In this document: positions 34,782 through 38,021 of the stretch, in pieces
Layout: every line of letters begins with the position of its first letter
Numbering within the stretch: position 1 is the first letter of the stretch
Assembly: GCF_013283645.1 (NCBI RefSeq)
Contig: NZ_JABEKV010000011.1
Span: 36,841 to 100,840 of the forward strand
DNA: 64,000 nucleotides
Direction: 5' to 3'
DNA from: Sinorhizobium psoraleae
Lineage (GTDB): Bacteria; Pseudomonadota; Alphaproteobacteria; Rhizobiales; Rhizobiaceae
Program-made: the position numbers and the translations under genes
The notes under the pieces: generated by a model
What the model was told of the DNA's origin: nothing
The model's database searches: none
Seen by the model: only the letters and a program-made list of their open reading frames with translations

Positions 34782-35612
34782 ATGGAACTTGTAACGCAAA
34801 ACCAATGTTTCGGCGGGACGCAGTCGGTTTACCGGCACGCGTCCGGGGTTTGCGGCGTCGAGATGACATTCGGCCTTTTTATGCCGCCGCAGGCGCGGAC
34901 GCGTCCGGTCCCGCTGCTGTGGTATCTCTCGGGGCTGACCTGCACGCATGAGAACGCCATGATCAAGGCCGGCCTGCAGCGGTCCGCGGCGGAGCATGGG
35001 CTGGGACTGGTTTTCCCCGACACATCGCCGCGCGGCGAAGGCGTCGCCGACGATGAGGCCTACGATCTCGGCCAGGGCGCGGGGTTCTACGTCAATGCGA
35101 CACAGAAGCCCTGGGCACGACACTACCGGATGTACGATTACATCGTCACGGAATTGCCCGCACTGCTGCAGGACCAATTGCCGATCAATGGTGTCAACGG
35201 CATTACCGGGCACTCCATGGGCGGCCATGGCGCGCTGACGATCGCCTTTCGCAACCCGGAAATGTACCGCTCGGTTTCGGCCTTTGCGCCGATTGTCAAT
35301 CCGACCCGGTCCGACTGGGGCCGCAAGCAGTTTTCGGCTTATCTCGGCGACGACGAGGCCCACTGGGGCAACTACGACGCCTGCCTGTTGCTCAGCGAAC
35401 ACGGCTGGCACGGCGATATCCTGATCGATCAAGGTGCGGCGGACCAGTTTCTGGAACAGCTACAGCCCGAGGCGATGGCGCGGCTGCTGGCGGAGCGGCG
35501 GCAGCCCGGCGTCCTCAGGATGCAGGCGGGATACGATCATAGCTATTTTTTCGTGGCGAGCTTTGGCGAGGACCACGTGCGCTGGCATGCAGAGCGGCTG
35601 AACGCCGCGTAA
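34782..35612 (+). CDS. fghA: S-formylglutathione hydrolase
   Basis: 276 residues of the esterase D fold. It hydrolyses S-formylglutathione to formate and glutathione in the cytoplasm. The nucleophile S145 lies in GHSMGGHGA, and the C-terminal GYDHSYFF contributes the catalytic His. It directly follows adhC, the preceding enzyme in the same path. Confidence 0.96.
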   Translation: MELVTQNQCFGGTQSVYRHASGVCGVEMTFGLFMPPQARTRPVPLLWYLSGLTCTHENAMIKAGLQRSAAEHGLGLVFPDTSPRGEGVADDEAYDLGQGAGFYVNATQKPWARHYRMYDYIVTELPALLQDQLPINGVNGITGHSMGGHGALTIAFRNPEMYRSVSAFAPIVNPTRSDWGRKQFSAYLGDDEAHWGNYDACLLLSEHGWHGDILIDQGAADQFLEQLQPEAMARLLAERRQPGVLRMQAGYDHSYFFVASFGEDHVRWHAERLNAA

Positions 35613-35625
35613 GGGAGAGGAAGGC

Positions 35626-36039
35626 ATGGCTTCAAGACTTGGCATCGTACTGGCGGCAACAGTCCTGTTCGGCGGAATTATCGGAGGCGCTGTTGCGCCG
35701 GCGCTTGCCCTGGATCCCTCAGCCGGCGATCCAGCGGCGGGCGAGAAAGTCTTTCGCAAGTGTCAGGCCTGCCACGCGGTCGGTGCAGATGCCAAATCGA
35801 AAACCGGCCCTGCGCTGACGGGCGTAATCGGCCGGCCGGCCGGCAAGGTCGAAGGCTTCAGCTATTCCCCCGCGCTGACCAAAGAGGCCGAGGCCGGGTT
35901 GGTGTGGACGCCGGACAAGATCGGTGAGTTTTTGACCAACCCGAAAGGGTTCCTACCCGGCACCAAGATGAGCTTTGCGGGATTGCGCAAGGATCAGGAG
36001 CGCGCCGATCTGATCGCATACTTGGCGACCTTTCCTTGA
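35626..36039 (+). CDS. Class I soluble c-type cytochrome
   Basis: 137 residues. A signal peptide (to about ALA) is followed by one heme site CQACH (Cys46, Cys49, His50) and a likely axial Met in GTKMSF. It resembles cytochrome c2/c-H type electron carriers. It lies between fghA and xoxF and may accept electrons from XoxG or feed a terminal oxidase. Its start has GGGAGAGGAAGG just upstream. Confidence 0.9.
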   Translation: MASRLGIVLAATVLFGGIIGGAVAPALALDPSAGDPAAGEKVFRKCQACHAVGADAKSKTGPALTGVIGRPAGKVEGFSYSPALTKEAEAGLVWTPDKIGEFLTNPKGFLPGTKMSFAGLRKDQERADLIAYLATFP

Positions 36040-36079
36040 TGCAAGCAGGAAGGGCCGAACACCAGCAGGAGGAATGTAG

Positions 36080-36175
36080 CCCCGGCAACGGGGATTAGTA
36101 TCGCAAGCCGATACCGGGAAAGAGGAGACCGCAAGGTTTTCCCGGGGCGAGCGGGGTGAATTGCCCTGATCGGCA
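36080..36175 (+). ncRNA. Structured 5' leader of xoxF with several stem-loops
   Basis: In the 156-base gap before xoxF I see CCCCG-GCAA-CGGGG (36080-36093), GTATCG-CAAGC-CGATAC (36098-36114), a long hairpin with outer stem CCGGGAAA/TTTCCCGG (36114-36121 with 36138-36145) holding a GAGGAG bulge and an inner ACC-GCAA-GGT, and TGCC-N6-GGCA (36162-36175). Two loops are GNRA type. Such order of stems is unlikely by chance and points to a cis-acting RNA. I do not match it to a known riboswitch. The xoxF ribosome site (AAGAGGAGGA, 36182-36191) lies just downstream. Confidence 0.55.
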
Positions 36176-36195
36176 GCACTCAAGAGGAGGATGAA

Positions 36196-37998
36196 ATGAA
36201 ACGACTTCTTACAATGCTTGCCTTGATGTCGATAGGCGGCGCGCAAGTCGCCCTCGCCAATCCAGAGTTGCAGAAACAGATCGACGACCCCAACCAGTGG
36301 GCGATCCAAACCGGCGACTATGCCAACCAGCGCTACTCCAAGCTCGATCAGATCAACAAGGATAACGTTGGCAAACTGCAGGTGGCGTGGACTTTCTCGA
36401 CCGGCGTTCTGCGCGGTCATGAAGGCTCGCCCCTGGTTATCGGCGACATGATGTATGTCCATACGCCGTTCCCGAATACGGTCTATGCGCTGGATCTCAG
36501 CAAGGAAGGTCAGATCGTCTGGAAATACGAGCCGAAACAGGATCCGGAAGTCATTCCCGTGATGTGTTGCGACACGGTCAACCGTGGCGTCGCCTATGCC
36601 GATAACAAGATCTTCCTGCATCAGGCCGATACGACGGTCGTGGCGCTGGACGCCAAGACCGGCAAGGTGATCTGGAGCGTCAAGAACGGCGATCCTTCGA
36701 AGGGCGAGACCAATACCGCCACCGTTTTGCCGGTGAAGGACAAGGTTATCGTCGGCATCTCCGGCGGGGAGTTCGGGGTTCGAGGTTCGGTGACGGCCTA
36801 TTCGATGGCAGATGGGAAGCTGCTGTGGCGCGGTTATTCCATGGGCCCGGACAGCGATACGCTGATGGATCCTGAAAAAACCACCCACCTGGGCAAGCCC
36901 GTCGGCAAGGACTCCGGTACGGCCACCTGGGAAGGCGATCAGTGGAAGATCGGCGGCGGCACGACCTGGGGCTGGTATTCCTATGATCCCGACGAGAACC
37001 TGGTGTATTACGGATCGGGTAACCCTTCGACCTGGAACCCGACCCAACGACCCGGCGACAACCGCTGGTCGATGACCATCTGGGCCCGTGATGTCGACAC
37101 CGGCATGGCCAAATGGGTCTACCAGATGACGCCGCATGACGAATGGGACTATGACGGCATCAACGAGATGATCCTGACGGAGCAGCAGGTTGACGGCAAG
37201 GATCGCAAGCTGCTGACCCATTTCGATCGTAACGGCTTCGGCTACACACTCGATCGCGTGACCGGCGAACTGCTGGTGGCGGAGAAATACGATCCGACCG
37301 TCAACTGGGCGACCGAAGTGGTCATGGATCCGAAGTCCGACCAGTACGGCCGGCCGCAGGTCGTGGCGCAGTATTCGACTGAAAAGAACGGCGAGGACAC
37401 CAACTCCACGGGCATCTGCCCAGCGGCGCTCGGCACGAAGGACCAGCAACCCGCCGCCTTCTCGCCGAAGACCGAGCTTTTCTATGTTCCCACCAACCAC
37501 GTCTGCATGGATTACGAGCCGTTCCGGGTAACCTACACCGCGGGTCAGCCCTATGTCGGCGCCACTCTGTCGATGTATCCGCCGAAGGACAGCCACGGAG
37601 GCATGGGTAACTTCATTGCCTGGGACAATAAGGAAGGCAAGATCAAGTGGTCCCTGCCGGAAGCGTTCTCCGTCTGGTCGGGCGCGCTGGCAACAGCGGG
37701 TGATGTGGTCTTCTACGGAACGCTCGAGGGCTATCTGAAGGCCGTCGACGCCGCGACAGGCAAGGAGCTCTATCGCTTCAAGACGCCTTCCGGGGTGATC
37801 GGCAACGTGATGACCTATTCCCATGGCGGCAAGCAGTACGTGGCCGTGCTCTCGGGTGTCGGGGGCTGGGCGGGTATCGGCCTGGCAGCCGGGCTTACCA
37901 ACCCGAATGACGGTCTCGGAGCGGTCGGCGGCTATTCCGCCCTCAGCAACTACACCGCGCTGGGCGGCACGCTCACCGTGTTCTCGCTGCCGAACTAA
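36196..37998 (+). CDS. xoxF: XoxF lanthanide-dependent methanol dehydrogenase
   Basis: 600 residues with a signal peptide (to VALA). It is a PQQ-binding eight-bladed propeller that oxidises methanol to formaldehyde or formate in the periplasm. The vicinal disulfide pair is C124-C125 ([10 protein letters not shown]). The active-site HDEWDYDG has catalytic D318 and the extra D320, the Asp that marks lanthanide-type XoxF; calcium-type MxaF has Ala there. The tryptophan-docking repeats (GKLLWRG, GKVIWS) are visible. It leads the xoxFGJ set. The leader carries a structured RNA. Confidence 0.97.
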
Positions 37999-38021
37999 AG
38001 GCAATCTTCGCCCACTGAATT

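What the first reader, a model, noticed from the sequence alone, without database searches (positions are those of the whole stretch)
36040..36195. Multi-stem RNA leader before the lanthanide-dependent methanol dehydrogenase gene
The 156-base leader holds at least four stems in order, two with GCAA tetraloops and one 8-bp stem with a six-base GAGGAG bulge. The regularity and the place before the most lanthanide-relevant gene suggest a cis-acting RNA, perhaps responding to lanthanide, PQQ or methanol. The stems are seen directly; the role is inference.
Basis: partly seen in the sequence, partly recalled or inferred. Interest (0 to 1): 0.8.

Follow-up and report, generated by a model that had tools for sequence, protein, structure and literature searches.

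The report
Conserved RNA leader of rhizobial xoxF
The stretch just before a rare-earth-dependent methanol-oxidising enzyme gene in a Sinorhizobium-type bacterium folds into an RNA that related bacteria keep in front of this gene, so it probably controls how much enzyme is made, but what it senses or binds is not known.

Summary
The stems are real, but only the 3' two-thirds of the leader (about 36099-36195) is a conserved RNA. A covariance model of that core (R1) finds strong hits directly upstream of xoxF: 19 of 19 loci at 46 bits or more (11 outside the seed), against 0 of 14 below 25 bits. The leader is in 27 of 33 genomes of the genus; the six without it lack a close xoxF. The core is more conserved than the rest of the leader or xoxF third codon positions. 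P2 and P3 show some compensatory changes, P2 mostly ends in a changing GNRA loop, and GAGGAG in P2 is nearly invariant. The first stem (36080-36093) is not conserved.

No Rfam family matches, and nothing points to lanthanide, PQQ or methanol as ligand. My best explanation is a post-transcriptional leader whose Shine-Dalgarno-like purine sites dock an anti-Shine-Dalgarno RNA: the 30S ribosome or alpha-r14-like sRNAs, of which this genome has six candidate loci. Of 49 mostly Rhodobacteraceae xoxF leaders, 28 carry GAGGAG, 16 in a hairpin loop. This mechanism is inference.

A second, unrelated and better-supported RNA (R2) precedes another xoxF in this genome and xoxF in nine Hyphomicrobiales families.

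The parts
36099..36195 (+). Conserved R1 RNA core plus xoxF ribosome-binding site
   Evidence: Covariance model hit 36099-36198, 122.8 bits (the window is in the seed, so it matches by construction); 43 hits, 36 distinct rows; mean identity of homologues to the window 0.87 against 0.59 for the upstream 60 nt (25 placed rows)
36107..36112 (+). P1 5' strand GCCGAU
   Evidence: Predicted by RNAalifold on A1 and A3; 98% of cells paired but no pair with a change on both sides
36169..36174 (+). P1 3' strand AUCGGC
36114..36121 (+). P2 5' strand CCGGGAAA
   Evidence: 4 of 8 P2 pairs have a change on both sides
36122..36127 (+). GAGGAG bulge in P2 (Shine-Dalgarno-like purine site)
   Evidence: GAGGAG in 34 of 36 distinct rows (exceptions L017 and L109); mean unpaired probability 0.65 over 36 sequences, 0.79 in the window
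36128..36137 (+). P2 inner hairpin ACC-GCAA-GGU
   Evidence: CC-GNRA-GG in 28 of 36 distinct sequences with six different loops (GCAA 15, GUAA 4, GUGA 3, GCGA 3, GAAA 2, GAGA 1); 8 are not GNRA
36138..36145 (+). P2 3' strand UUUCCCGG
36153..36157 (+). P3 5' strand GGGGU
   Evidence: P3 ranks first in a structure-blind helix scan; innermost pair is UG, UA, CG or GC
36163..36167 (+). P3 3' strand GCCCU
36184..36192 (+). xoxF Shine-Dalgarno GAGGAGGAU
   Evidence: Sequence; in the 221-nt fold (36040-36260) unpaired probability in 36183-36193 varies from 0.04 to 0.87 by base
36067..36073 (+). Upstream Shine-Dalgarno-like site AGGAGGA
   Evidence: 33 of 36 leaders have at least one GGAGG/GAGGAG cluster in the 90 nt upstream of the core; mean 1.25 against 0.41 in shuffles
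36080..36093 (+). First stem CCCCG-GCAA-CGGGG, not conserved
   Evidence: Upstream region mean z -0.01 in 36 homologues
36196..37998 (+). xoxF, lanthanide-type PQQ methanol dehydrogenase
   Evidence: TIGR03075, 786.5 bits, over its cut-off of 480.05; WDYDG in the translation; that the second Asp marks lanthanide enzymes is recalled

Best explanation
The leader is a cis-acting RNA that controls translation and/or stability of the xoxF message. Its core is a three-way junction (P1 closing P2 and P3) that ends about 20 nt before the start codon, and several Shine-Dalgarno-like purine sites sit in and upstream of it. I propose that these sites, one held in the P2 hairpin beside a GNRA loop, dock an anti-Shine-Dalgarno RNA. 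That partner would be either the 3' end of 16S rRNA in a waiting 30S subunit, which protects the message or feeds the true start site, or the CCUCCUCCC loops of alpha-r14-type sRNAs, by loop-loop contact. Shown: the conserved RNA, its tie to xoxF, the purine sites and the presence of alpha-r14-like loci. Inferred: the docking, its partner and the direction of control.
For: R1 hits at 46 bits or more are upstream of xoxF at 19 of 19 loci (8 of them seed genomes, 11 new), and 0 of 14 weaker hits are. The leader is in 27 of 33 genomes of the genus, and the six without it have no xoxF closer than 77%. On 36 distinct rows: 5 pairs with both-side change against a shuffle mean of 1.2 (1 of 500), covariation score 0.135 against 0.108 sd 0.005 (0 of 500) and at most 0.063 in slid registers. 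GAGGAG is kept in 34 of 36 rows while the loop beside it changes. Extra GGAGG clusters upstream exceed shuffles, 1.25 against 0.41 sd 0.10. In 49 mostly Rhodobacteraceae xoxF leaders GAGGAG occurs in 28, against 2 of 242 other leaders of the same loci (corrected count); it sits in a hairpin loop in 16 of the 28, flank-shuffle mean 3.0 sd 1.6, maximum 7. In this genome 7 of 292 sampled leaders hold GAGGAG. Ten spaced CCUCCUCCC pairs at six loci here, 0 in the reversed-pattern control; most fold with the motif in hairpin loops. S. meliloti NfeR1 (alpha-r14) silences ntrBC mRNA with such loops (PMC10746234, passages).
Against: Counts of double changes are weak: on the 29-row seed alignment 2 pairs (60 of 500 shuffles as high), and the structure slid by +1 gives 3 pairs and 5 cells, more than the true register; on the larger set slide +1 gives 3 pairs and 7 cells, the same number of cells as the true register. 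P1 shows no double change. In the window another fold is lower in energy than the junction (-35.0 against -29.1 kcal/mol). In the window the P2 site pairs with the sRNA loop less well than the gene's own Shine-Dalgarno does (-12.8 against -15.2 kcal/mol; net -7.3 against -10.1), and it does not meet the strict hairpin-loop test used for the other leaders, only a loose one. GAGGAG is partly paired in a slipped P2 register. In the 20 remaining xoxF loci that I first left out, GAGGAG occurs in 1 and in no hairpin loop, so the theme is 29 of 69 overall. The loop against Shine-Dalgarno comparison used leaders chosen for GAGGAG and is biased. A simple docking site does not explain the conserved P1, junction strand and tail. 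No expression data.
Confidence: 0.38

Rival explanations
1. R1 is the aptamer of a riboswitch: P1-P2-P3 bind a small molecule or ion linked to XoxF (lanthanide, PQQ, methanol, formaldehyde or glutathione adduct), and the fold sets access to the ribosome-binding site.
For: Junction with conserved unpaired bases and a kept GNRA loop; one gene served. A competing hairpin (P3 5' strand with the tail CACUC) is the window's free-energy minimum; its duplex is stronger than shuffled tails in 28 of 36 homologues, and the structure that includes it has a covariation score of 0.119 against 0.103 (2 of 500). The U run of P2 can also pair with the Shine-Dalgarno (among the 40 best helices, below P2 and P3).
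Against: Not in Rfam. The competing hairpin is no better than shuffled in 8 of 36 and has little weight in the ensembles (mean 0.19 pairs against 3.97 for P3). No terminator-like site in the leader. Only xoxF is served, so no ligand can be read from gene context. A similar purine theme occurs in leaders that do not match R1.
Confidence: 0.2
2. The hairpins are a passive intercistronic stabiliser or processing site in an adh-fghA-cytochrome-xoxF message, raising xoxF yield above its neighbours.
For: Adh, fghA and cytochrome genes lie on the same strand with gaps of 10 and 13 nt, then the 156-nt leader. No sigma-70-like promoter in 35500-36400, though the scan expects only 0.2 by chance and does not cover other promoter types.
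Against: Conservation of bulge, junction and tail above third codon positions is more than a generic hairpin needs. In several relatives the sequence before the leader differs from the cytochrome end seen here (the genes there were not identified).
Confidence: 0.2
3. The leader is bound by a protein (XoxF autoregulation or another RNA-binding protein) that recognises the GAGGAG/GNRA element.
For: Nearly invariant bulge and junction sequence inside a stable stem.
Against: CsrA, a known reader of GGA loops (recalled), is absent from this genome by profile search, which did find it in 3 of 14 control genomes. No candidate protein known.
Confidence: 0.14
4. The conservation reflects a DNA-level promoter or operator, and the RNA structure is incidental.
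For: Transcription start unknown; leader lies where a promoter could be; double changes are few.
Against: GNRA replacement, structure-blind recovery of P3 and P2, no sigma-70-like site, conservation right up to the start codon.
Confidence: 0.06

Closest known systems
Targets of alpha-r14 / NfeR1 anti-Shine-Dalgarno sRNAs (Sinorhizobium) and CcsR1-4 (Rhodobacter)
   Same: Purine site complementary to CUCCUC; alpha-r14-like loci are present in this genome; CcsR1-4 target flhR mRNA (PMC8307010, passages), whose product is a methanol/formaldehyde regulator (recalled)
   Different: The ntrB pairing is described at the translation initiation region (PMC10746234, passages); here one site sits in a structured hairpin about 70 nt upstream. 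No pairing tested.
STAB-SD leaders such as cry3A of Bacillus thuringiensis (recalled; PMC4113751 seen in a search listing only)
   Same: Shine-Dalgarno-like site far upstream of the true start site
   Different: Here the site is in a conserved three-way junction, in Gram-negative bacteria; no stability data
Riboswitch-type leaders in Rfam
   Same: Structured, gene-linked 5' leader
   Different: No family reaches its gathering score; the two hits at E up to 10 are NEAT1_3 and a group II intron model at E 1.9 and 2.7
R2, the other xoxF leader RNA found here
   Same: Structured RNA upstream of xoxF
   Different: Different consensus and structure; in this genome R2 hits the other xoxF locus (63.3 bits) and, weakly, one other place, not the R1 site

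Membership tests
Any Rfam 15 family | Score at or above the family gathering score | tested here: not met
   0 hits in the 64-kb window; at E up to 10 only NEAT1_3 16.7 of 55 bits and group-II-D1D4-6 9.1 of 49 bits
Cis-acting structured leader RNA | Base pairing kept by compensatory change across relatives | tested here: met
   Moderate. 5 pairs with both-side change (1 of 500 shuffles as high), covariation score above all 500 shuffles and all six slid registers; but slide +1 has as many double-changed cells, and the seed set alone is not significant for pairs. Support comes from P2 and P3, not P1
Cis-acting structured leader RNA | Consistent linkage to one gene or pathway | tested here: met
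   19 of 19 strong loci upstream of xoxF (11 not in the seed), 0 of 14 weak ones
Cis-acting structured leader RNA | Transcribed as part of the mRNA | not testable with these tools
   No transcript map available
Metabolite or metal riboswitch | Ligand binding in a fixed pocket | not testable with these tools
   Needs in-line probing or SHAPE
Metabolite or metal riboswitch | Conserved expression platform (alternative fold or terminator) | tested here: inconclusive
   P3-tail alternative better than shuffled tails in 28 of 36, not in 8; 0.119 against 0.103, 2 of 500; no terminator-like site in the leader
alpha-r14 sRNA target | Site complementary to CCUCCUCCC with favourable net energy, and such sRNA loci in the genome | tested here: met
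   Duplex -10.7 kcal/mol, opening 3.4, net -7.3 at the bulge; the true Shine-Dalgarno is better, net -10.1; six loci with spaced CCUCCUCCC motifs
alpha-r14 sRNA target | Regulation through that pairing | not testable with these tools
   Needs reporter and sRNA deletion strains
CsrA/RsmA target | CsrA encoded in the genome | tested here: not met
   PF02599: 0 matches in G000, found in 3 of 14 control genomes
STAB-SD type stabiliser | Shine-Dalgarno-like site upstream in the mRNA | tested here: met
   that this stretch is in the mRNA is assumed
STAB-SD type stabiliser | 30S binding that lengthens mRNA half-life | not testable with these tools
   Needs half-life and footprint data

The most novel reading that the evidence does not exclude
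xoxF genes of Alphaproteobacteria have independently gained several unrelated RNA sensors in their leaders (R1 in Sinorhizobium and relatives, R2 across Hyphomicrobiales), and at least one of them reads lanthanide or PQQ status directly; I saw no RNA sensor for this metal use in the papers searched.
Probability: 0.12. Interest if true: 0.92.

Novelty: new variant of a known kind. Interest (0 to 1): 0.6.

Why it matters
How bacteria match xoxF expression to lanthanide and methanol supply is only partly known. The passages I read of the recent rhizobial study (PMC12628762) mention regulation only in passing and cite a Bradyrhizobium regulation paper that I did not see. A leader RNA tied to this one gene gives a defined 100-nt piece that can be cut out, mutated and probed, and a second RNA class (R2) at the other xoxF of the same genome allows a paired test. 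If the purine-site idea holds, it would show a hairpin-held Shine-Dalgarno mimic as a landing site for anti-Shine-Dalgarno RNAs.

Tried and rejected
First stem (36080-36093) as part of the element: rejected, upstream region not more stable than shuffles in 36 homologues. Second stem GUAUCG/CGAUAC: competes with P1, covariation equals shuffles. CsrA target: no CsrA gene. Tiny ATG-TAG reading frame at 36074-36079: among the 36 leaders printed seen only in the window and L088. R1 in other leaders: no hit better than E 0.88 in 71 loci. Structure shared between R1 and R2: the own-genome R2 hits are at C1 and, weakly, C23, not the R1 site. Not rejected but ambiguous: the P3-tail alternative hairpin.

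Papers: xoxF with riboswitch (7 papers listed), Sinorhizobium xoxF lanthanide (12), methanol dehydrogenase with candidate riboswitch (0), SMb20173 (1, listing only; that this is the S. meliloti xoxF tag is recalled), lanthanide riboswitch methylotroph (4), xoxF untranslated region (2), xoxF small RNA (15 listed of 9,364 with two of three terms): no xoxF leader RNA seen in these listings or in the passages read of PMC12530212, PMC12628762 and PMC12403871. The library holds open-licence papers only, so this is weak evidence of absence.

Corrections made: an earlier count gave 20 of 20 and 13 of 13; the right counts are 19 of 19 and 0 of 14. In one search, of 29 loci given (36 distinct homologues exist) two were not located (L017, L123) and two had a wrong start (L010, L106, core identity 0.20); the means I quote are over the other 25, worked out by hand from the printed rows. 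The control counts (10 of 255; 9 of 294) contained faulty slices for genes at a stretch's edge; one search repeats them correctly (2 of 242; 7 of 292). The 49 xoxF leaders were picked by eye from the 69 non-R1 loci after I had read them; one search adds the other 20. The window-gene control missed xoxF itself because a longer antisense frame was picked there.

Full report
What is there. The order of genes is adh (named from its translation, recalled), fghA (TIGR02821), a cytochrome c (nearest NCBIfam model below its cut-off), xoxF (TIGR03075), a methanol-linked 4-cysteine cytochrome (TIGR03874), a MoxJ-like protein (TIGR03871) and a CXXCW protein (TIGR03865). The genome is of a Sinorhizobium/Ensifer type: the nearest named relatives of this xoxF are in Sinorhizobium, Ensifer, an Agrobacterium and Ciceribacter. 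The leader folds somewhat better than shuffled sequence (z -2.1; core z -2.4), which alone would not convince.

Which part is conserved. I searched the 33 held genomes of the genus with the leader DNA: 27 have it. The six without it (G001, G007, G009, G011, G024, G030; G030 is only 70% complete) have no xoxF above 77% identity, while three other genomes put in the same call, G006, G021 and G234, have one at 95, 94 and 84%. Aligned core sequences (29 rows) gave an RNAalifold three-way junction (covariation term only -0.3 kcal/mol). I built a covariance model, R1, with a hand-set version of that structure. It found strong hits in 7 of 394 Rhizobiaceae genomes, in 13 of 60 genomes of the genus of G357 (a fourteenth had only a weak hit) and again in G234 (1 of 3 genomes of its genus). 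At 46 bits or more, 19 of 19 loci have xoxF directly downstream; of the 14 loci below 25 bits none has it. Eight of the 19 come from genomes already in the seed (L117-L122, L141, L142, by matching contig positions), so 11 are new. In scans of many genomes only a limited number of candidates per genome is scored (10, 67), so absence there is weak evidence. In 71 other loci, nearly all holding xoxF relatives, no R1 hit is better than E 0.88. Rhodobacter sp. SW2 (L017) does carry R1 (77.4 bits); it was in the seed.

How good the structure is. The 43 aligned hits (36 distinct; seed sequences included) give 94.8% standard pairs, 5 pairs with changes on both sides (shuffle mean 1.2, 1 of 500 as high), 7 such cells (mean 1.3, 0 of 500) and a covariation score of 0.135 (mean 0.108, 0 of 500); slid registers score 0.019 to 0.063, but slide +1 also has 7 double-changed cells. 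On the 29-row seed alone the pair count is not significant (2 pairs, 60 of 500) and slide +1 has more double changes than the true register. The larger alignment was fitted to the model, which leans towards it, and the sequences are related, so these counts are moderate support and not probabilities. A scan of all possible helices, blind to the structure though on the same alignment, puts P3 first and P2, with a slipped inner part, second. P1 has only one-sided changes, so P1 is consistent but not proven. P2 ends in CC-GNRA-GG in 28 of 36 distinct sequences, with six different GNRA loops; 8 differ. Mean ensemble probabilities for single sequences are 0.68 for P1, 0.78 for P2 and 0.50 for P3; in the window itself another fold is lower in energy than the junction (-35.0 against -29.1 kcal/mol). 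For 25 placed homologues the mean identity to the window is 0.87 in the core, 0.59 in the upstream 60 nt and 0.71 at third codon positions of identical amino acids, and the core is the highest of the three in all 25 (29 given, two misplaced and two unlocated left out).

The purine theme. GAGGAG is in the P2 stretch of 34 of 36 rows. Upstream of the core, 33 of 36 leaders have at least one further GGAGG/GAGGAG cluster (mean 1.25, shuffles 0.41 sd 0.10; none on the other strand). In 49 other, mostly Rhodobacteraceae, xoxF leaders that do not match R1, GAGGAG lies between -140 and -22 in 28 (shuffles 4.6 sd 2.0 for 50 leaders including L017), against 2 of 242 other leaders in the same loci. In 16 of the 28 it is in the loop of a hairpin of at least 6 pairs, where flank shuffles give 3.0 sd 1.6 with a maximum of 7; 1 of 242 control leaders has such a hairpin. 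The 20 xoxF loci left out of that set, mostly Hyphomicrobiales, have GAGGAG in 1 and no such hairpin, so the theme is 29 of 69 overall and belongs to one group. In the window's own genome 7 of 292 sampled leaders have GAGGAG, 1 in a strict and 2 in a loose hairpin; the window's xoxF leader meets only the loose definition, because an inner hairpin lies in its loop. Motif and set were chosen after looking at these leaders, so the enrichment is post hoc; the hairpin test given the motif was not chosen on stems.

A likely partner. The genome has ten spaced CCUCCUCCC pairs at six loci and none for the reversed pattern. Most fold as hairpins with the motif in the loops; the one at C4 does so least clearly. 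This is the form described for alpha-r14 sRNAs (PMC3927594, passages; PMC10746234, passages). NfeR1 of this kind silences ntrBC by pairing at the ntrB start region. In R. sphaeroides the CcsR1-4 sRNAs target flhR mRNA (PMC8307010, passages). Pairing energy at the P2 site is -10.7 with 3.4 to open; the true Shine-Dalgarno is better, -13.6 with 3.5. So the P2 site is not needed merely to offer a target, and a docked 30S subunit, as in STAB-SD leaders (recalled), is an equal candidate. CsrA is not encoded.

What is not shown. No ligand, no transcript start, no regulation. Rfam has no match. An alternative hairpin between the P3 5' strand and the tail just before the Shine-Dalgarno is the window's energy minimum, beats shuffled tails in 28 of 36 homologues and not in 8, and has little weight in the ensembles on average (pair count). 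It leaves a switch possible. The riboswitch reading therefore stays open at about one in five.

The second RNA. While comparing xoxF leaders I found an unrelated structured RNA, R2, upstream of a second xoxF of this genome (G000:C1:455306-455423) and of xoxF in Ancylobacter, Xanthobacter, Methylopila and Methylobacterium. A model from 11 sequences hits 31 of 249 genomes of the order at E 0.01. The 26 best loci (L160-L185, from nine families; the own genome and one row equal to a seed are among them) all have xoxF downstream; the next four (L186-L189) do not, and the last was not fetched. In 54 distinct sequences, seeds included, 80.3% of cells pair, 17 of 25 pairs have changes on both sides, 144 cells against 61.8 sd 9.1 in shuffles (0 of 500), score 0.315 against 0.184, slid registers at most 0.106. 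No Rfam family reaches its gathering score in the 19 loci scanned, seven of which carry R2, and none overlaps R2 at L060 even at E up to 10. R2 is the stronger riboswitch candidate and deserves its own study.

Verdict. The finding is right that a cis-acting RNA probably precedes xoxF, wrong in detail on which stems count, and unproven on what it responds to.

Noticed in passing
G000:C1:455306-455423 (L169, L002), outside the window; also L049, L052, L056, L060, L061, L065, L073, L074, L078, L086, L160-L185, L190-L208: R2, a second structured RNA upstream of a different xoxF, in nine Hyphomicrobiales families, with strong covariation (17 of 25 pairs) and no Rfam match in the loci scanned; every one of the 26 best order-wide loci lies upstream of xoxF.
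   Followed up: partly
L018-L085, 49 xoxF leaders, mostly Rhodobacteraceae, -140 to -22: GAGGAG in 28 of 49, in a hairpin loop in 16, with unrelated stem sequences; 2 of 242 other leaders of the same loci have the motif.
   Followed up: partly
G000: C4, C12, C23, C34 (two), C65 (L219-L228): Six loci with spaced CCUCCUCCC motifs, most folding as alpha-r14-like sRNAs with the motif in hairpin loops.
   Followed up: partly
L016 (record titled MAG Arenimonas), same place as L141 in G425: Its R1 row equals that of Ciceribacter (L015), and the assembly is placed in the same Rhizobiaceae genus, so the record title is probably wrong.
   Followed up: no
L017 (Rhodobacter sp. SW2): The only Rhodobacteraceae-type xoxF locus examined with a clear R1 leader; may reflect transfer of xoxF with its leader between families.
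   Followed up: no
window 35953-38004, minus strand: A 683-aa antisense open frame covers xoxF and the leader; probably an effect of high G+C content.
   Followed up: no
L064, L070, L081 (Methylobacterium xoxF leaders): Leaders that differ from R2 in the middle; L064 scores 17.8 bits with R2, L070 and L081 give no hit.
   Followed up: no
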